Source: Acidobacteriota bacterium (GTDB lineage: Bacteria > Acidobacteriota > Thermoanaerobaculia > UBA5066). Taken from it: a stretch of 56,014 nt of DNA. Position 1 is the stretch's first letter. Every line of letters starts with the position of its first letter. Where the stretch lies: NCBI GenBank assembly GCA_003152095.1, contig PLZI01000076.1:4352-60365 (forward strand), written 5' to 3'. A program made the position numbers and the translations under genes. Of this stretch, positions 40,848-48,398 are shown in pieces. A model generated the notes under the pieces. That model had not been told where the DNA came from. It ran no database searches and saw nothing but the letters and a program-made list of their open reading frames with translations.

Positions 40848-41570
40848 ATGAGCGATTCCCGCCGCATCGTCCGCTACCGAAACCGCAAGCTCTACGAGGC
40901 GCGCGAGCGCCGTTTCGTGACCTTGGGCGACCTCGCGAAGGCCGTTTCCGAGGGTGAGCGGGTGGAAGTCATCGCCGCCGACACCGGCGAGGACATCACG
41001 GCCCGGATCCTCTCGCGGGCCATCGGTTCCGGGCGGGCGCCCGTCGCGGCCTCGGCCGACACGCTGGCCCGCCTGCTCCGCGCGGGCAGGGAGGCGGCCG
41101 AAACCGTCGCGGGAGCCGTCGAGCTCGTCGGCGGCGCCCGCGTGGCGGAGTCGCTCCGCCGGGCCTCGCGCCCCGAGAGCCTCGGCCGGACACTGGCCCC
41201 GCTCACGCGCCGGCTCGAAGACGCCCGTCAGGACGTCGAGAAGATCGTCGGCGGGCTCGTCGAGAAGGGCCGGCTCACGTGGGAGGAGGGAACGCGCCTG
41301 CGCGAGGACGTCGGCCTCGTCTTCCAGGAGAGCCTTTCCGACTTCGTCAGCAGCGTCCGCGAGATCGCGAGCCGGCTGTCTCCGAGCACGCAGCCCGGGC
41401 TCGCGAAAGAGATCGGCGACCTCAAGACGCGCCTCGACCAGCTCGAGTCCCTCGCAAAAAACGCCTTTCCCGCGGAGTTTCCGAAAGGGGCTCTCCCGCA
41501 CCGCGGCGCGGTACAAACCGGCACCCATCCCAGGAAAAAGACCCAGAACAAGAAAAGGAGAACCACATGA
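40848..41570 (+). CDS. PhaR-type regulator fused to a phasin-like helical domain
   Basis: The 240-residue protein begins with the PHA-accumulation regulator DNA-binding domain (PF07879 type): [29 protein letters not shown], then [15 protein letters not shown]. The rest is helical. [19 protein letters not shown] and [19 protein letters not shown] resemble granule-associated phasin (PhaI/PhaF) helices, and the tail is basic. In known systems PhaR binds both polymer and DNA and represses phasin genes. The fused phasin-like part would let one chain sense the granule surface. Twin palindromes overlap its promoter, and it is coupled to the next gene by ATGA. Confidence 0.82.
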
Positions 41571-42073
41571 AAACCACTGCGCGCAAGACCTCTCCGAAGC
41601 ACCCCGTCCACGTTCCGACGCCCGTCGAAAAGGTCCTGAAGACGGCGGGCCACCGCTTCGACGCTCTCAGCCTCAAGGCGAAGAGCGTCGCGGCCCAGAC
41701 CGAAAGGAAGGTCAAGGTCGCGGCGCACGACCTCAAGAAGACCGGCCAGTCGCTCGCGAAGGACCCGCGCGCCTTCGTCGAGGAGGTCATGGAGTCGGGC
41801 CGGGATCTCGGCCACATGCTCCGCACGAACGCGGGGAAGGTCCGGGGCGACGTCCAGGTGCGCGTTCAGAAGGCGGGCGCCGAGGCGGCTCGCCGCGCCG
41901 AGGGCGTCGCGAAGAACGTGACCGAGACCGTCGGCACGGCCGTGGAGAAAGGCCTCCACAGCCTGAACGTCCCCACGCGCAAGGAGCTCCGCTCGCTCTC
42001 GGCCAAGGTCGACGGCCTCGGCAAGAAGATCGACGCGCTCAAGGCCCGCAAGCCGGCGCGGCGCGCCCGCTGA
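41567..42073 (+). CDS. Phasin-like granule-associated protein
   Basis: The 168-residue product is lysine- and alanine-rich and almost all helix. The middle part is amphipathic (VRVQKAGAEAARRAEGVAK). The C-terminal segment GLHSLNVPTRKELRSLSAK plus VDGLGKKIDAL matches the PhaF/PhaI signature, a leucine-zipper-like helix after a PTRKE turn, and is followed by a basic tail KARKPARRAR that could bind DNA. Phasins coat PHA or lipid granules. An ATGA overlap and an AAGGAG site tie it to the regulator gene. An intrinsic terminator follows 26 bases after the stop. Confidence 0.75.
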   Translation: MKTTARKTSPKHPVHVPTPVEKVLKTAGHRFDALSLKAKSVAAQTERKVKVAAHDLKKTGQSLAKDPRAFVEEVMESGRDLGHMLRTNAGKVRGDVQVRVQKAGAEAARRAEGVAKNVTETVGTAVEKGLHSLNVPTRKELRSLSAKVDGLGKKIDALKARKPARRAR

Positions 42074-43535: not shown

Positions 43536-44531
43536 TCAATCCCCCGTGAACAGGTTGCCGCGGCGCGCGAGGCGCGAATCGATCATCGTCTGGAGCGTCG
43601 AGCGCACGTGATCCGCGAGCTCGTTCACGATCATGGGGCGGTCGGCGACGTCGGGCCCATGGTCGAACGCGATCGGCTTGCCGATGTCGATCCACCACTT
43701 CGTCGGCAGCGGCAGGACGCCGAGCGGGCCGAGAAGCGGGAACGTGGGAGTGAGCGGGAAGTACGGCAGTCCGAGCGGCCTGCCGATGAAATCCATGTGC
43801 GCGAGGTTCGGGTGGATCTCCTCTGCGCCCACGACGGCCACCGGGATGATCGGGGCGCCTGTGAGCAGCGCGAGGCGCACGAAGCCGCCACGCCCGAAGC
43901 GCGCGAGGCGGTAGCGGTCGCGAAAGAGCTTGCCGACGCCCTTGACACCCTCGGGGAAAACCCCGACGAGCTCGTCGCGCCGAAGCAGCCGCGCGCCGTT
44001 CTCGGGGCAGGCGCGTACCTCGCCCATGTGGCGTAGCCACGGCTGCAGGAACGGCAGCGTCGTGAACATGTCAAGGACGAGCATGCGCGCCGTGCGGTGC
44101 GCGGGGTGCTCGCGCGCGATGCCGCGCTTGACCATCGCGCCGTCCCACGGCAGGACTCCGGAATGATTCGCGACGAGGAGCGCGCGGCCCACATTCGGCA
44201 CGTTCTCGACTCCGTTCAGCGTCACGCGCCACCACACGGTGTAAAGGAAGTCGAAGAGCTCGGCCCACGGGCGCGCCGCGACCTCGTCATAGCCGAAGTC
44301 GTCGAGAAGGAACGTGCGCGACCGGTTGCGGAAGAGGTTCCAGGCGTCCACGAGCGCGCGCGGCGATCTAAATTCCGGATGCGCGTCGAGGAACCGGGCG
44401 GCCTCGCCGAGGAGAACGTGCCGGAGGTCGTCCGGATTCTTCCGGAGGAGCGACGGCGTCAGGCCCGCGTCGTACGCGGGCTCGGAGGGGGCCGGGGCGG
44501 CGTGCGGGGAAGAATGGCGGCGGGCGCTCAA
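43536..44531 (-). CDS. Lysophospholipid acyltransferase (PlsC-like)
   Basis: The 331-residue product starts at TTG 44531, overlapping the SDR stop as TTGA. It has the acyltransferase blocks NHSGVLPWD (the H-x4-D catalytic pair), FPEGVKGVGKLF (block III) and PIIPVAVVGAEE (block IV). GYDEVAARPWAELFDFLYTVWW precedes the first block. The family moves acyl chains to lysophosphatidate or related acceptors at the membrane surface. It forms a pair with the SDR gene, an order I recall from other high-GC bacteria but could not check. Acceptor unknown. Confidence 0.85.
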   Translation of the reverse strand: MSARRHSSPHAAPAPSEPAYDAGLTPSLLRKNPDDLRHVLLGEAARFLDAHPEFRSPRALVDAWNLFRNRSRTFLLDDFGYDEVAARPWAELFDFLYTVWWRVTLNGVENVPNVGRALLVANHSGVLPWDGAMVKRGIAREHPAHRTARMLVLDMFTTLPFLQPWLRHMGEVRACPENGARLLRRDELVGVFPEGVKGVGKLFRDRYRLARFGRGGFVRLALLTGAPIIPVAVVGAEEIHPNLAHMDFIGRPLGLPYFPLTPTFPLLGPLGVLPLPTKWWIDIGKPIAFDHGPDVADRPMIVNELADHVRSTLQTMIDSRLARRGNLFTGD

Positions 44532-45682
44532 GAGGCGATCCCCTGCGCGCGAACCCGCGGCCGAGGACGGACGCGCTGCTCGTAGGCATAGCGTGCCGCG
44601 CGGGCCGCGTCCGCGACGGCGTCGAAGTCCACGAGGCGTCCCGACCCGAACCGGGCGCGCGCCGTCTCGAGAACGACCTCGAGCGTCGTGTGCTTCGCCG
44701 AGAAGCCCAGTACCCGCCGGGCTTTCTCGTCGTCCACGACGCAGGAATAGCGGAGATAGTCCACGTGAACGCCCGGCATCAGGCCCACGCCCGCGAGCCA
44801 CGTGCCCTCGTACAGCGCGTAGCCGAGCGGATGCGGCACGGGGATCCCGAGGGAACCGAAGAGCAGGCGCACCGTGGAGAGAGGCACGACGCCCTCGGGC
44901 GCGATGTTGAAGACGCCCTGCGCTTCGGGCCGGTCCAGCGCCCGGACGAGCGCGTCGACGGCGTCATCCGGATGCAGCGCCTGCAGGAGCGGGTCGTACC
45001 CCATGAGCTGCCACGAGAACGGGGCCGCAAAGAGCCGGGCCCGGTAATCGCGGACCTCGGGCGACAGCAGCGGGACGAACCTCAGGATCTGCACGCGCGA
45101 CTCCGGATGGCGGCGCACGTGAGTTCGCGCGTGACTCTCGGCCTCGACGAAGTCACGCACGAACCGGTCTTCCGGATCGGGCAGAAGGGGATGCTCTTCC
45201 GTGAGGAAGTTCGGGTTGTCGCCGCGCGCGCCGTACACGAGCGAGGTCGAGCCGAGGATGATGCGCGGCACCCTCGCCTCGCCGGAGGCCGCGAAAACAT
45301 GCAGCGCGCCGATGGCGTTCAGCTCGTGTGCGTACGTGACCTCGCGCGAAGGGCTGCGGAGCTGCGCGAGATGGACGATGACGTCGGGCTTCTCTTCCTT
45401 CAGGAGCTTGAAGAGCGTGCCGTCGGCGAACGGCAGGTTCAGATCGAGGAAGCGGTGCTTCACCTCCGGCAGGTCCGCCGGAGGCACGAGGTCGAACACG
45501 ACGACCTCGCGATCGCCGCGGGCAAGGAGCGCGCGAACGAGCCGTTCTCCGAAGAAGCCGCTGCCGCCCGTGACGACGACCTTCAACTGCTTCGTCGCGG
45601 CGTTCACGACCTTCGGAAAGCGCACGACGCGCCCGCCGGATCCATTCCGGCGCGGGGCCTTCGCGTCGCGCTTCCCCGCCAT
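44528..45682 (-). CDS. SDR family NAD-dependent epimerase-like protein
   Basis: The 384-residue protein has a basic N-terminal extension of about 32 residues, then the Rossmann motif TGGSGFFGE (38-46) and PDVIVHLAQ, typical of extended SDRs. The active-site region keeps STSLVYG, but the YxxxK catalytic pair expected about 25 residues later is not visible (DRFVRDFVEAE instead). It may therefore bind a nucleotide without being a normal dehydrogenase. It could act on a sugar or lipid head group. It overlaps the acyltransferase gene and lies seven bases after the small phasin-like gene. Confidence 0.78.
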   Translation of the reverse strand: MAGKRDAKAPRRNGSGGRVVRFPKVVNAATKQLKVVVTGGSGFFGERLVRALLARGDREVVVFDLVPPADLPEVKHRFLDLNLPFADGTLFKLLKEEKPDVIVHLAQLRSPSREVTYAHELNAIGALHVFAASGEARVPRIILGSTSLVYGARGDNPNFLTEEHPLLPDPEDRFVRDFVEAESHARTHVRRHPESRVQILRFVPLLSPEVRDYRARLFAAPFSWQLMGYDPLLQALHPDDAVDALVRALDRPEAQGVFNIAPEGVVPLSTVRLLFGSLGIPVPHPLGYALYEGTWLAGVGLMPGVHVDYLRYSCVVDDEKARRVLGFSAKHTTLEVVLETARARFGSGRLVDFDAVADAARAARYAYEQRVRPRPRVRAQGIAS

Positions 45683-45689
45683 CGTGCCC

Positions 45690-45989
45690 CTAGCCCTTCC
45701 GTCCGGAAGCCTTGCGGGCGCGCGCGGGTTTCGCGGTCGCGTTCGCCTTCATGGCCCGGAGCTCGGCTTCCATCTCGGCGAGACGCTTCTCCAGTCTCAA
45801 GACGTCCTTGCGCGCCGCGACGTTCATCACCTTGAGGCCCTCGGCCACGCGCTTGTCGACCTCTTCCTTCGCGGCGATGCCCTTCTTCAACACCTCGATG
45901 AAGCCCGGGTTCGCCATCAGGTTGTTGGAGATCTCCGTGAGGAAACCCTCGCCGCGGGCCTTGAGCTGGTCGAACAGGGATTCGGACAT
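45690..45989 (-). CDS. Small phasin-like protein
   Basis: The 99-residue helical protein has LKARGEGFLTEISNNLMA, then GLKVMNVAARKDVLRLEKR, the same PhaF-like turn and heptad helix seen in the phasin-like protein at 41567, and a basic alanine/lysine tail (KPARARKASGRKG). An AAAGG site precedes the ATG. Its signature and position at the head of the SDR-acyltransferase unit suggest a structural coat protein of the same body. Its small size matches PhaI-type phasins. Confidence 0.72.
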   Translation of the reverse strand: MSESLFDQLKARGEGFLTEISNNLMANPGFIEVLKKGIAAKEEVDKRVAEGLKVMNVAARKDVLRLEKRLAEMEAELRAMKANATAKPARARKASGRKG

Positions 45990-46046: not shown

Positions 46047-46487
46047 ATGCGGCCATTTCGCGGGAAGGACGAGTTCCAGAGGATCTTCGACCGCCTCTTC
46101 ACCGCGCTCGCGACGGATCCCGAAATCGGACCGAAGCTGGCGGCGACGAAGACCCCGCAACGATTCGTCTTCGAAGGCTCCGGCCTCGTCCTGAACGTGA
46201 CGCACGCGAACGCGAAGACCGCGAAAAAGGGCCGGCACCTCATGTGGGTCTGGGGCGATCGGAAGCGCACCTGGGAGCCCGTCGTCAGCATGACGATGGC
46301 CCCGGACGTCGCGAACCGGTACTTTCAAGGCAAAGAGAACATCCCGCTCGCGATCGCGCGCAAGATCATCGTCCTCGACACAGGTGATCTCGCGCGGGTG
46401 CTCGACCTCCTCCCCATCGTCGCGCCGTTCCACCGGAAATGGGTGGCGATCCTGAAGGCCGAAGGATTCGCGCACCTCCTCGCGTAG
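46047..46487 (+). CDS. SCP2-like sterol/lipid-carrier domain protein
   Basis: The 146-residue protein shows the order of an SCP2 domain: helix (FQRIFDRLFTALATDPEIG), strands RFVFEGSGLVLNVTH and HLMWVWGD, then VVSMTMAPDVANRYFQGKENIPLAIARKII and a closing helix with FHRKWVAIL. SCP2 folds bind acyl-CoAs or other lipids in a tunnel. The usual PDLT segment is changed to PVVSMTMA. Assignment is by eye and moderate. Six bases separate it from the ArsA-like gene, so they form one unit. Confidence 0.6.
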   Translation: MRPFRGKDEFQRIFDRLFTALATDPEIGPKLAATKTPQRFVFEGSGLVLNVTHANAKTAKKGRHLMWVWGDRKRTWEPVVSMTMAPDVANRYFQGKENIPLAIARKIIVLDTGDLARVLDLLPIVAPFHRKWVAILKAEGFAHLLA

Positions 46488-46493
46488 GCTGCC

Positions 46494-48398
46494 GTGCGCC
46501 CGACGCCCCTTCTCGAAAGCCTCGTCTCCCGCCGTCTCCTCGTCGTGTCGGGCAAGGGCGGCGTCGGGAAAACCACGGTCGCCGCCGCCCTCGCGAAGCT
46601 CGCGGCGGAGGCGGGCAGGACGACCCTCCTCGTCTCGACGGACGGCCGGGGCGACGCCACCACCCTGTTTGGAAAGCGGGATGCGGGCTACCAAGAGGCC
46701 GAGCTGGCCCCGCACCTCCATGGCCTCACCGCAGACTTCGACACGCTCCTTGCCGACTTCGTGGGGGCCCTCGCTCCGGTGCGCGCGCTCGGAAACCGAC
46801 TCCTCGCCGTCCCGGCGTTCCGCTTCTTCACGCGCGCCACGCCCGGCCTTCCCGACCTCCTCCTCCTCGGAAAGATCCGGGAGATCCTCAGGCGAAAGGA
46901 AGCGACCGCGCGCGCGCCGAAAGTCGATCTCGTCGTCCTCGACGCCCCAGCGACCGGTCACGCGCTTTCCCTCGTCGCGCTCCCCCGCACCCTTCTCGGA
47001 ACGGTTCCCGCGGGACCCGTGCGAAAGCTCGCGGAGTGGCTCGACGCGCTTCTCGAGGAACCGAAGGACGCCGCACTGGTCGTCGTGTCCGAACCCGAGG
47101 ACTTCGCGGCGAAAGAGACGGAGGAGCTGATCGCGGGGGCACGGCAAAAGGCCGGCCTGTCGACCGCGCTGGTCGTCGTGAACCGCATGGGACGAGGGGA
47201 AAGACAAGAGAGAGAAACGCTTCCGAAGACGGATGCAGGAATCCCGCTGACCCTGATTCCAGAGATCGAACCTGAAACGGAGGCCTCGCGGTTCTTCGAA
47301 ACTTTTCTCACCACATTCGAGGAGAATTCGGCGTTACCTTCGCGAGATTTCAGCCGTACGGGTTCGGCCCGTCGGCCTGCTCGGGAAAGCAGAGAATTCT
47401 TCTCTTCTCTTCTTTCTCGGTCGAACACCCTCGATCTCCGCCCGTGGCTCGACCACGAGAAGCTGATCGTCCTCACCGGACCAGGGGGCGTCGGGAAGAC
47501 GACTCTCGCGGCCGCGCTCGCGCTTGCGGCCGCGCGCCGCGGGCGGCGCGCCCTCGTGCTCACCGTCGATCCCGCGCGGCGCCTCGCACAGGCCCTCGGC
47601 ATTTCCGAAAGGGACGCGCGGTCCGGCCACCCCTCCGAGGTGAGCGCCTCCGGCATCCCGAAGAGCGGCCGCCTCCTCGCGCTTCAGATCGACCCCAGGG
47701 CCACCTTCGAGCGCCTCCTCGCGCGCACCGCGAGCCCCGAGGCGCTCGAGAGAATCCGCGGGAACCGCCTTTACTCGGGGCTCGTCGATTCGCTGCCCGG
47801 CGTCCTCGAGTACATGGGCGTCGAAGCGCTGCACGAGCACGCGGCGGATCCCGAGGTCGACCTCCTCGTGCTCGACACGCCCCCCGCTGCGCGCGGCCTC
47901 GATTTCCTCGCGGCGCCGGAACGCATGGTCACGCTCCTCGAGAACGACGCCCTGCGCTTCTTTCTCCGGCACGACGGTTTCTTCGGGCGCGCGCTTTCCG
48001 AAGCGTCGCGCGGCGGCGCGATCCTTTTGCGCGCCGCCGATCGCGTCCTCGGCCTCGGCTTCCTCGCCGACCTCGCGGACTTCTTCCGCGCTTTTGACGG
48101 CCTCTACGACGGCTTCCAGGCCAGGAGTCGGGAGGCGGCGAGGCTTCTTTCGGCGGGGCGCTTCCTCGTCGCGACGACGCTGGACTTCTCCGCGCTCGCA
48201 ACCTCCGAGGACCTCGCCGCTGGCCTCGCACGCCGCGGCGCCGCGCCGGGCCTGATCCTGAACCGCGTGAGCAGCCGCGTTACGAGCGCGCCGAGACTTT
48301 CCGGATCGCTCGCCGCGCTCCCTGCGCTCGCCCTCCCCGAGATGGACGTGCCCGCGGACGACCTGCCGTCGGCCCTTGCGTCCGCGCTCGCGGATTGA
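46494..48398 (+). CDS. Tandem ArsA/Get3-like ATPase
   Basis: The 634-residue protein, from GTG, consists of two ArsA-family ATPase halves. The first has the deviant Walker A GKGGVGKTT (20-28), DGRGDATTLFG and DAPATGHALSL. The second, from about residue 315, has GPGGVGKTT, TVDPARRLAQALG and DTPPAARGLDFL. The second Walker A lacks the signature lysine (GP instead of GK). A linker encoded by an AT-rich patch (47180-47420) joins them. Family members energise arsenite extrusion or, as Get3, carry hydrophobic membrane proteins. No ars genes lie nearby, so arsenic is unlikely; cargo delivery is a better guess. Confidence 0.88.
   Translation: MRPTPLLESLVSRRLLVVSGKGGVGKTTVAAALAKLAAEAGRTTLLVSTDGRGDATTLFGKRDAGYQEAELAPHLHGLTADFDTLLADFVGALAPVRALGNRLLAVPAFRFFTRATPGLPDLLLLGKIREILRRKEATARAPKVDLVVLDAPATGHALSLVALPRTLLGTVPAGPVRKLAEWLDALLEEPKDAALVVVSEPEDFAAKETEELIAGARQKAGLSTALVVVNRMGRGERQERETLPKTDAGIPLTLIPEIEPETEASRFFETFLTTFEENSALPSRDFSRTGSARRPARESREFFSSLLSRSNTLDLRPWLDHEKLIVLTGPGGVGKTTLAAALALAAARRGRRALVLTVDPARRLAQALGISERDARSGHPSEVSASGIPKSGRLLALQIDPRATFERLLARTASPEALERIRGNRLYSGLVDSLPGVLEYMGVEALHEHAADPEVDLLVLDTPPAARGLDFLAAPERMVTLLENDALRFFLRHDGFFGRALSEASRGGAILLRAADRVLGLGFLADLADFFRAFDGLYDGFQARSREAARLLSAGRFLVATTLDFSALATSEDLAAGLARRGAAPGLILNRVSSRVTSAPRLSGSLAALPALALPEMDVPADDLPSALASALAD

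What the first reader, a model, noticed from the sequence alone, without database searches (positions are those of the whole stretch)
46047..48398. SCP2-like protein coupled to a two-headed ArsA/Get3-like ATPase
A lipid-carrier domain protein six bases before a tandem ArsA-type ATPase, with no arsenic gene nearby, suggests hydrophobic cargo transfer. The second half has lost the Walker A signature lysine (GPGGVGKTT), so the two halves may have unequal roles.
Basis: partly seen in the sequence, partly recalled or inferred. Interest (0 to 1): 0.55.

Follow-up and report, generated by a model that had tools for sequence, protein, structure and literature searches.

The report
Fused Get3-like ATPase of storage-granule locus
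In an acidobacterium, a small lipid-carrier-like protein sits just before a fused two-part ATPase related to the tail-anchor chaperone Get3, inside a gene neighbourhood for fat- or polymer-storage granules, which suggests that this poorly understood ATPase family helps to build or service such granules.

Summary
P0001 (46047-46487) reaches no Pfam cut-off, but its confident AlphaFold model is an SCP-2 fold (Z 12.3) and 3 of 13 relatives scanned pass the SCP2 cut-off. P0002 (46494-48398) is not an arsenic ATPase: its halves are relatives, in order, of mycobacterial BagA and BagB, bacterial Get3-like ATPases, here fused; it has no cysteine. The 'lost' signature lysine is no local decay: in 33 loci counted, 33 of 33 BagA-type P-loops have it and 33 of 33 BagB-type ones lack it.

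The new point is the neighbourhood. In Acidobacteriota, 14 of 23 bagB loci outside the window's family lie beside phaR-phasin-patatin, long-chain acyl-CoA ligase or SCP2L-WS/DGAT genes. BagB co-occurs with phaR in 20 of 21 genomes; none of the 21 has a PhaC_N match. P0001's family recurs beside SDR-acyltransferase genes or WS/DGAT. The exact SCP2L-bagAB pair is patchy: 2 of 13 family genomes with a visible junction.

Best reading: an ATPase of storage inclusions with an asymmetric ATP site, next to a lipid carrier. Neutral lipid is favoured over PHA, but G009 has a PHA-synthase-like gene. Cargo, and contact between the two proteins, are inferred. New variant of a known kind.

The parts
46047..46487 (+). 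P0001, SCP2-fold lipid-carrier-like protein, 146 aa, no cysteine
46494..48398 (+). P0002, fused BagA-BagB (Get3/ArsA-type) ATPase, 634 aa, no cysteine
46551..46574 (+). P-loop of the BagA half, GKGGVGKT (residues 20-27), signature lysine K21 present
47478..47501 (+). P-loop of the BagB half, GPGGVGKT (residues 329-336), signature lysine replaced by proline, P-loop lysine K335 kept
45690..45989 (-). 99-aa coiled, phasin-like protein (Phasin E 7e-4, 20.1 bits, below the cut-off of 28.8), conserved beside bagAB in the family and beside some P0001 relatives
44528..45682 (-). SDR-type epimerase/dehydratase family protein
   Evidence: PF01370 76.1 bits
43536..44531 (-). PlsC-type acyltransferase (the open frame extends to 44801)
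   Evidence: PF01553 54.4 bits
42145..43449 (+). patatin-like lipase/phospholipase (start chosen by me at an in-frame ATG)
   Evidence: PF01734; translation
41567..42073 (+). phasin
   Evidence: PF05597 38.9 bits; gene start
40848..41570 (+). PhaR-like regulator (PHB_acc_N)
   Evidence: PF07879 55.9 bits

Best explanation
The pair is part of a locus for storage inclusions, more likely neutral lipid (wax ester or triacylglycerol) than ordinary PHA in this genome. P0002 is a BagA-BagB heterodimer made as one chain. Like Get3, ATP binding should close the two halves around a hydrophobic surface formed by their helical subdomains; hydrolysis should release a hydrophobic cargo, most likely granule-surface proteins (phasin, patatin lipase, acyltransferase) or a lipid, at the growing inclusion. 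Only the BagA half has the signature lysine, which in this ATPase class reaches the nucleotide of the partner (recalled), so the nucleotide bound by the BagB half should be the one hydrolysed and the BagA-half nucleotide structural or regulatory. P0001 is an SCP2-type pocket protein that would carry acyl-CoA, fatty alcohol or a similar lipid for the same pathway. Shown here: homology, fold, lysine asymmetry in every locus counted, absence of cysteine, recurrent linkage and co-occurrence with granule and neutral-lipid genes. Inferred: cargo, which site hydrolyses ATP, ligand of P0001, kind of inclusion, and any contact between P0001 and P0002.
For: Halves match BagA then BagB models (E 1e-44, 6e-67) and 6bs3 chains A and B; the model aligns full length with ArsA (Z 27.0, 505 residues) and its second half with 6bs3_B (Z 25.8, 308 residues). 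P0001 model (pLDDT 94.7) is an SCP-2 fold. Signature lysine in 33/33 BagA-type and 0/33 BagB-type P-loops. Fused bagAB lies beside the phasin-like coil gene in 13 of 14 family genomes, with phaR-phasin-patatin visible in 7 of 14 (the others are cut by contig ends). Outside the family 14 of 23 bagB loci have granule or lipid genes close by: phaR-phasin-patatin in 8, acyl-CoA ligase just upstream of bagA in 4 more, acyl-CoA ligase plus SCP2L plus WS/DGAT in 2 (recount). In 297 phylum genomes BagB occurs with phaR in 20 of 21 (40 of 276 without BagB) and with WS/DGAT in 12 of 21 (27 of 276); PhaC_N in 0 of 21. The P0001 family is found in 4 of 297 at E below 1e-10, all 4 BagB-positive. P0001 relatives lie beside WS/DGAT in 8 and beside SDR plus acyltransferase in 12 of 62 loci. 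A paper reports WS/DGATs with a C-terminal SCP2 domain in Bacteroidota (PMC10351704, passages).
Against: No experiment. Gene linkage does not give the cargo. P0001 sits beside bagAB in only 2 of 13 family genomes with a visible junction; 5 of 14 family genomes lack the family altogether. Weaker P0001 matches (E 2e-5 to 2e-8) occur in BagB-negative genomes (G023, G072, G173). The own WS/DGAT gene lies on another contig, and WS/DGAT is missing in 9 of 21 BagB genomes. Against 'not PHA': G009, the only other genome with the exact pair, has a PHA-synthase-like gene cut by a contig end (TIGR01836 198 bits, cut-off 365), and 3 of the 4 positive controls also score below that cut-off, so the cut-off does not decide. 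Three loci (L220, L221, L223) carry a BagA-BagB pair in a different context, with a third ArsA-type ATPase; 6 other loci outside the family show no granule gene or could not be read. Mycobacterial data link bagAB to glycerol and nitric-oxide tolerance (cited in PMC10597346). The P0002 model is only moderate (pLDDT 76.7), and no groove was inspected.
Confidence: 0.47

Rival explanations
1. P0001 and BagAB share only a neighbourhood. P0001 belongs to a coil-SDR-acyltransferase or WS/DGAT lipid module and was placed before bagAB by chance in part of the family; the two proteins do not act together.
For: P0001 relatives occur beside SDR and acyltransferase (12 of 62 loci) or WS/DGAT (8 of 62), with bagAB in only 2 of 62 (many contigs are short). 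11 of 13 visible junctions in the family lack P0001, with the other neighbours in place.
Against: All 4 of 297 genomes with a P0001-family match below 1e-10 have BagB. The association recurs in distant genomes, G110 and L151.
Confidence: 0.35
2. BagAB is a bacterial Get3 for tail-anchored or other membrane proteins in general, with no special tie to storage inclusions.
For: Get3 structures, including TA-bound ones, are among the best matches of the first half (Z about 25). TIGR00345 126 bits, just under its cut-off of 135.
Against: BagB is found in only 21 of 297 phylum genomes, 20 of them with phaR; a general insertion factor should not track granule genes. No CxxC in 13 of 13 fused proteins.
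Confidence: 0.15
3. As reported for mycobacteria, BagAB guards against toxic glycerol metabolism and nitric oxide; the granule genes are incidental.
For: A citing paper reports that role (PMC10597346, passages). NCBIfam BagA and BagB are the best-scoring models.
Against: Scores are far below the equivalog cut-offs (226 against 521, 153 against 400), so function need not carry over. The linkage with phaR, phasin and acyl-CoA ligase is repeated in several families. Glycerol toxicity could itself reflect lost flow into acylglycerol (inference).
Confidence: 0.12
4. A ParA/MinD-like positioning or partition ATPase for granules: it moves or spaces inclusions rather than loading them.
For: Same ATPase class (ParA and MinD models match the P-loops). 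Granule partners beside it.
Against: The closest relatives by sequence and fold are Bag, Get3 and ArsA, not ParA or MinD.
Confidence: 0.1
5. Arsenite-pump ATPase (ArsA).
For: PF02374 144.3 bits; full-length fold match to ArsA.
Against: arsen_driv_ArsA 70.6 bits against a cut-off of 650. No cysteine at all in P0002, so no thiol arsenite site.
Confidence: 0.02

Closest known systems
BagA/BagB (Rv3679/Rv3680), Mycobacterium tuberculosis, PDB 6bs3-6bs5
   Same: A-type and B-type partners, signature lysine only in A (GKGGTGKST in 6bs3_A, GAGGVGKTT in 6bs3_B; alignments), Get3-like fold.
   Different: Fused into one chain here; well below the equivalog cut-offs; neighbourhood of granule and lipid genes, which I recall is not the mycobacterial one (recalled, not tested).
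Get3/TRC40
   Same: Fold (Z about 25), P-loop class.
   Different: Homodimer with two signature lysines and CxxC (recalled); here one lysine per pair and no cysteine.
ArsA
   Same: Two ATPase halves in one chain; full-length fold match.
   Different: No cysteines, no signature lysine in the second half, ArsA model cut-off not reached.
SCP-2 / SCP-2L lipid carriers (human MFE-2 domain, UbiJ, alkylsulfatase C-domain)
   Same: Fold (Z 8 to 12.3).
   Different: P0001 itself is not recognised by PF02036.
WS/DGAT proteins with C-terminal SCP2 domain (Bacteroidota)
   Same: SCP2 domain tied to neutral-lipid synthesis (PMC10351704, passages).
   Different: Fused to the synthase there; separate gene here.

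Membership tests
SCP2 (PF02036) | Pfam gathering score by the protein itself | tested here: not met
   No SCP2 hit for P0001
SCP2 (PF02036) | Profile score reached by relatives | tested here: met
   3 of 13 scanned pass 21.3 bits (L133 22.5, L040 domain 22.0, L177 21.4); L153 20.8, L038 20.4, L039 17.5, L037 16.3 below; L029, L031, L032, L033, L035, L041 no SCP2 hit
SCP2 (PF02036) | SCP-2 fold | tested here: met
   Foldseek E 7e-5 to an SCP2-type domain; Z 12.3, rmsd 2.4, 112 residues aligned to 8af3
SCP2 (PF02036) | Lipid binding | not testable with these tools
   needs a binding assay
ArsA_ATPase superfamily (PF02374) | Gathering score | tested here: met
   144.3 against 24.3 bits
BagA/BagB equivalogs (NF053622, NF053621) | Curated cut-offs | tested here: not met
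   153.1 against 400; 226.4 against 521
BagA/BagB type | A-type half with, B-type half without, signature lysine | tested here: met
   P0002 and all 33 loci counted
Get3/TRC40 (TIGR00345) | Model cut-off | tested here: not met
   126.1 against 135
Get3/TRC40 | CxxC zinc motif | tested here: not met
   0 of 13 fused proteins
Get3/TRC40 | Hydrophobic cargo groove | not tested
ArsA arsenical pump ATPase (TIGR04291) | Model cut-off | tested here: not met
   70.6 against 650
ArsA arsenical pump ATPase | Cysteine arsenite site | tested here: not met
   no cysteine in 634 residues
PHA granule locus | PHA synthase in the genome | tested here: not met
   G000 has no match to PF07167 or TIGR01836; but G009, the other genome with the pair, has a PhaC-like gene (198 bits), and G005 a weak match

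The most novel reading that the evidence does not exclude
Bag-type ATPases are a dedicated biogenesis machine of bacterial storage inclusions: a Get3-like pathway in which an asymmetric, single-lysine ATPase loads phasins and lipases onto nascent wax-ester or triacylglycerol droplets, with an SCP2 protein shuttling the lipid, in bacteria that have PhaR and phasins but mostly no detected PHA synthase. The mycobacterial glycerol phenotype of bagAB would then be a secondary effect of failed acylglycerol storage.
Probability: 0.28. Interest if true: 0.85.

Novelty: new variant of a known kind. Interest (0 to 1): 0.57.

Why it matters
The role of bacterial Get3-like (Bag) ATPases is open, and I recall no ATPase of this class tied to bacterial lipid-inclusion formation. 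A repeated bagAB-phaR-phasin-patatin and acyl-CoA-ligase context gives a concrete, testable role. PhaR and phasin genes in genomes where no PHA synthase was detected suggest that these 'PHA' proteins may serve neutral-lipid inclusions in part of Acidobacteriota. The single signature lysine per pair gives a clear biochemical prediction of an asymmetric ATP cycle.

Tried and rejected
ArsA arsenic function: rejected (no cysteine, model cut-off far off). Local decay of the second P-loop: rejected (33 of 33 BagB-type loops lack the lysine). In that count I sorted loops by the switch I motif behind them; the motif list was written after I had seen these loci, and L111, L219, L222 and L224 (cut or unread) were not given to it.

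Ordinary PHA locus: disfavoured for the window (G000 has no match to PF07167 or TIGR01836) and for the 21 BagB genomes of the sample (PhaC_N 0 of 21; TIGR01836 tested in 16 of these 21 and in six more family genomes). Not clean: G009 has a PhaC-like gene at a contig end (198 bits), G005 a weak match, and only 1 of 4 positive controls passes that model's cut-off.

Sequence search of PDB with the P0001 profile gave only one weak match, apparently to an expression-tag stretch (8u1j, E 0.034). A tree of 69 P0001-family proteins did not settle whether the two genes in the bagAB slot have one origin (long branches). The 142-aa gene just after bagB in L123 looked SCP2-like to me by eye, but Pfam finds nothing; left open. 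The own WS/DGAT contig (7.6 kb) shows no link to bagAB (genes). Loci L120, L222 and L224 could not be read near bagB with my simple gene finder; they are counted among the 9 of 23 without granule or lipid genes, together with L122, L126, L214 and L220, L221, L223. In L214 an LCAT-like lipase lies near; I did not count it.

Literature: all ten searches used, of which I saw the listings. In these listings I saw no paper that ties bagAB to phasins, WS/DGAT or lipid inclusions; several searches had more papers than were listed. The two primary bagAB papers were not held and are known to me only through a citing paper's passages and reference list and recall. PMC12216072 (passages) reports Rv3679/Rv3680 insertion mutants with altered fitness under two antibiotics. 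PMC10248533 was searched for six terms without a hit.

Co-occurrence tests treat genomes as independent, which they are not; BagB genomes span 15 families, 14 of them with phaR. The P0001 threshold of 1e-10 was my choice; weaker matches (G023, G072, G173) are BagB-negative.
Full report
What is there. The window is part of contig C21 of a 3.6-Mb genome, 99% complete.

P0002. NCBIfam names the halves: the BagA model's best stretch is residues 12-234 (E 1.2e-44) and the BagB model's 321-613 (E 5.7e-67), both below their equivalog cut-offs. The best solved relatives are 6bs3 chain B for the second half (E 3.6e-41) and chain A for the first (E 2.2e-22), the M. tuberculosis Rv3680/Rv3679 complex. 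The AlphaFold model (pLDDT 76.7, pTM 0.77) aligns full length with two-domain ArsA (Z 27.0, rmsd 3.5, 505 residues) and its second half with 6bs3_B (Z 25.8, rmsd 3.6, 308 residues). Thirteen of the 14 genomes of the family (own included) show the two halves in one open frame with both P-loops; in the fourteenth, G003, the contig starts inside the first half. Other families carry separate, adjacent bagA and bagB genes.

The signature lysine. I read the residue in the second place of GxGG[VTA]GK in 33 loci, sorting the loops by the switch I motif that follows (motif list made after seeing the loci): BagA-type K in 33 of 33; BagB-type P 13, S 9, A 8, G 3. The mycobacterial pair shows the same (K in chain A, A in chain B; alignments). 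So the asymmetry is an old family trait. In this ATPase class the signature lysine contacts the partner subunit's nucleotide (recalled), which predicts one complete ATP site, that of the BagB half. Both halves of P0002 keep the switch I aspartate (TDGR, TVDP). P0002 and P0001 contain no cysteine; none of 13 fused proteins has a CxxC. That speaks against an ArsA thiol site and a Get3 zinc site.

P0001. Pfam finds no SCP2 domain in it. With an alignment of 11 relatives it folds with high confidence (pLDDT 94.7, pTM 0.87) into an SCP-2 fold: Foldseek's leading matches are alkylsulfatase SCP2 domains, archaeal and eukaryotic SCP-2 and UbiJ (E from 7e-5), and VIA-align gives Z 12.3, rmsd 2.4, over 112 residues to human SCP-2L. 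Of 13 relatives scanned, 3 pass the Pfam SCP2 cut-off, 4 hit below it, 6 show no SCP2 hit.

Is the pair conserved? In the family f1 (14 genomes, own included) 9 have a P0001 relative, but only the window and G009 (another genus) have it in the slot between the 99-aa coil gene and bagAB; 11 of the 13 junctions that can be seen lack it, including two of the own genus (G001, G002; the third, G003, has no P0001 match at all). Beyond the family, a P0001 relative lies about 4 and 6 kb from bagA-bagB in two distant loci, G110 and L151 (Vicinamibacteraceae). There the order is bagA, bagB, deacetylase-fold gene, acyl-CoA ligase, P0001 relative, WS/DGAT, with a coil gene between the last two in G110 and three small genes before the P0001 relative in L151. 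In a sample of 297 phylum genomes 4 have the family at E below 1e-10 and all 4 are BagB-positive, while 21 of 297 have BagB (chance 2e-5 if genomes were independent, which they are not). Weaker matches in other genomes (G023, G072, G173) are BagB-negative.

What P0001 relatives keep company with. Of 62 loci found in named genomes, WS/DGAT is near the gene in 8 (Acidobacteriota, Myxococcota), SDR plus acyltransferase together in 12 (records labelled Actinobacteria, mostly Thermoleophilia) and acyltransferase alone in 2, bagAB in 2. Many contigs are short, so these are lower bounds. A phasin-like coil cluster is present in 34 of 62 and a long SDR cluster in 11 of 62; the one long SDR scanned scores 914 bits against a cut-off of 549 for PRK07201. 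That SDR resembles the Marinobacter fatty acyl-CoA reductase of wax-ester synthesis by recall only. The window has a like set: coil, SDR and acyltransferase genes lie directly before P0001 on the other strand. A paper on WS/DGATs reports Bacteroidota enzymes of about 613 residues with a C-terminal domain in which SCP2 was detected in two of four (PMC10351704, passages).

What bagAB keeps company with. In the window and its family the fused gene sits in the row phaR, phasin, patatin, acyltransferase, SDR, coil, bagAB, hutH-type lyase, purA-type gene; the coil is seen in 13 of 14 and phaR-phasin-patatin in 7 of 14, the rest being cut by contig ends. Conserved order inside one family proves little (hutH and purA are also kept), so I looked further out. 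Of 23 bagB loci outside the family, 8 have phaR, phasin(s) and patatin directly beside the pair (L121, L212, L213, L215-L219), 4 others have a long-chain acyl-CoA ligase just upstream of bagA (L123, L124, L125, L127; L212 has both), and 2 have acyl-CoA ligase, SCP2L and WS/DGAT (L037, L151): 14 of 23. The other 9 show none (L122, L126, L214, L220, L221, L223) or could not be read near bagB (L120, L222, L224). By coordinates, phaR lies within 7 kb of bagB in 10 of the 20 sampled genomes that have both, from six families; my rough estimate for chance is about 0.06 genomes.

Co-occurrence. In 297 phylum genomes: BagB 21 (E below 1e-30), phaR 60, WS/DGAT 39 (38 over the cut-off), PhaC_N 23. BagB with phaR 20 of 21, against 40 of 276 without BagB (the exception, G262, is 77% complete); BagB with WS/DGAT 12 of 21 against 27 of 276; BagB with PhaC_N 0 of 21, against 23 of 276, which by itself is not significant (p 0.39); WS/DGAT with phaR 38 of 39. 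Within the 60 phaR genomes 20 have BagB, 22 have PhaC_N, none both (p 9e-6). A class III synthase model was run on 22 BagB genomes (16 of the 21 and six more of the family): two match, G009 (199 bits) and G005 (36 bits); the four PhaC_N-positive controls all match, one of them over the cut-off of 365. The G009 gene is cut by a contig end and its best model is that synthase (198 bits). So the window's genome, with one WS/DGAT on another contig and no detected PHA synthase, looks like a neutral-lipid case, while the other genome with the exact pair may make PHA. The kind of inclusion is therefore open.

Mechanism. I read P0002 as an ATP-driven clamp of the Get3 kind that handles a hydrophobic cargo for storage inclusions, with one productive ATP site, and P0001 as a lipid carrier of the same pathway. 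The links from gene context to granule, and from family to clamp, are reasonably supported; the cargo (phasin, lipase, acyltransferase or lipid) and a contact between P0001 and P0002 are guesses. The rival that the two merely share a lipid neighbourhood is serious, because most relatives of either gene live without the other nearby.

Known or new. BagA/BagB are known, solved and studied in mycobacteria, where a citing paper reports a role against glycerol and nitric-oxide toxicity (PMC10597346, passages; the primary papers were not held). In the listings of ten literature searches I met no paper that connects them with inclusions. The fused form, the granule neighbourhood and the SCP2 neighbour make this a new variant of a known kind.

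Noticed in passing
L220, L221, L223: Three ArsA-type ATPases in a row: BagA-type, BagB-type, and a third (in L221 shown to carry ArsA_HSP20), followed by a 69-92 aa protein (the L221 one has no Pfam match). The L221 BagB scores higher against the mycobacterial BagB model (339 bits) than the window's (226) or L037's (221).
   Followed up: partly
L039:3-2162 (-), L040:14489-16342 (+): An SCP2-like N-terminal domain fused to a dehydrogenase E1 / transketolase protein; in L039 it lies next to an SDR gene.
   Followed up: partly
297 phylum genomes: phaR occurs in 38 of 39 genomes with WS/DGAT, but PhaC_N in only 22 of 60 phaR genomes: PhaR may be a general storage-inclusion regulator in this phylum.
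   Followed up: partly
G000:C160:17247-18676 and G000:C122:22-654 (L002-L004): Further ArsA-type matches in the own genome, two adjacent at one contig end and one at another contig's start; not studied.
   Followed up: no
L165, L176, L178: Records titled 'Bifidobacterium breve' whose P0001 relatives group among Solirubrobacterales rows in the tree and whose neighbour genes match theirs: probably mislabelled metagenome bins.
   Followed up: no
L123:11160-11588 (+): A 142-aa gene right after bagB that looked SCP2-like by eye but has no Pfam match at E 0.01.
   Followed up: partly
L037:11897-13630 (-), L151:2369-4165 (+): A deacetylase-fold gene (PF00850 in L037; 59% identical in L151) directly after bagB in the two loci that also have SCP2L and WS/DGAT.
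   Followed up: no
L116 (G010) BagB half: Switch I aspartate replaced by alanine (TVAP) in one fused protein; could be real or a sequencing error.
   Followed up: no
L232:1-1140 (-) (G009): A PHA-synthase-like gene cut by a contig end in the only other genome with the exact SCP2L-bagAB pair.
   Followed up: partly
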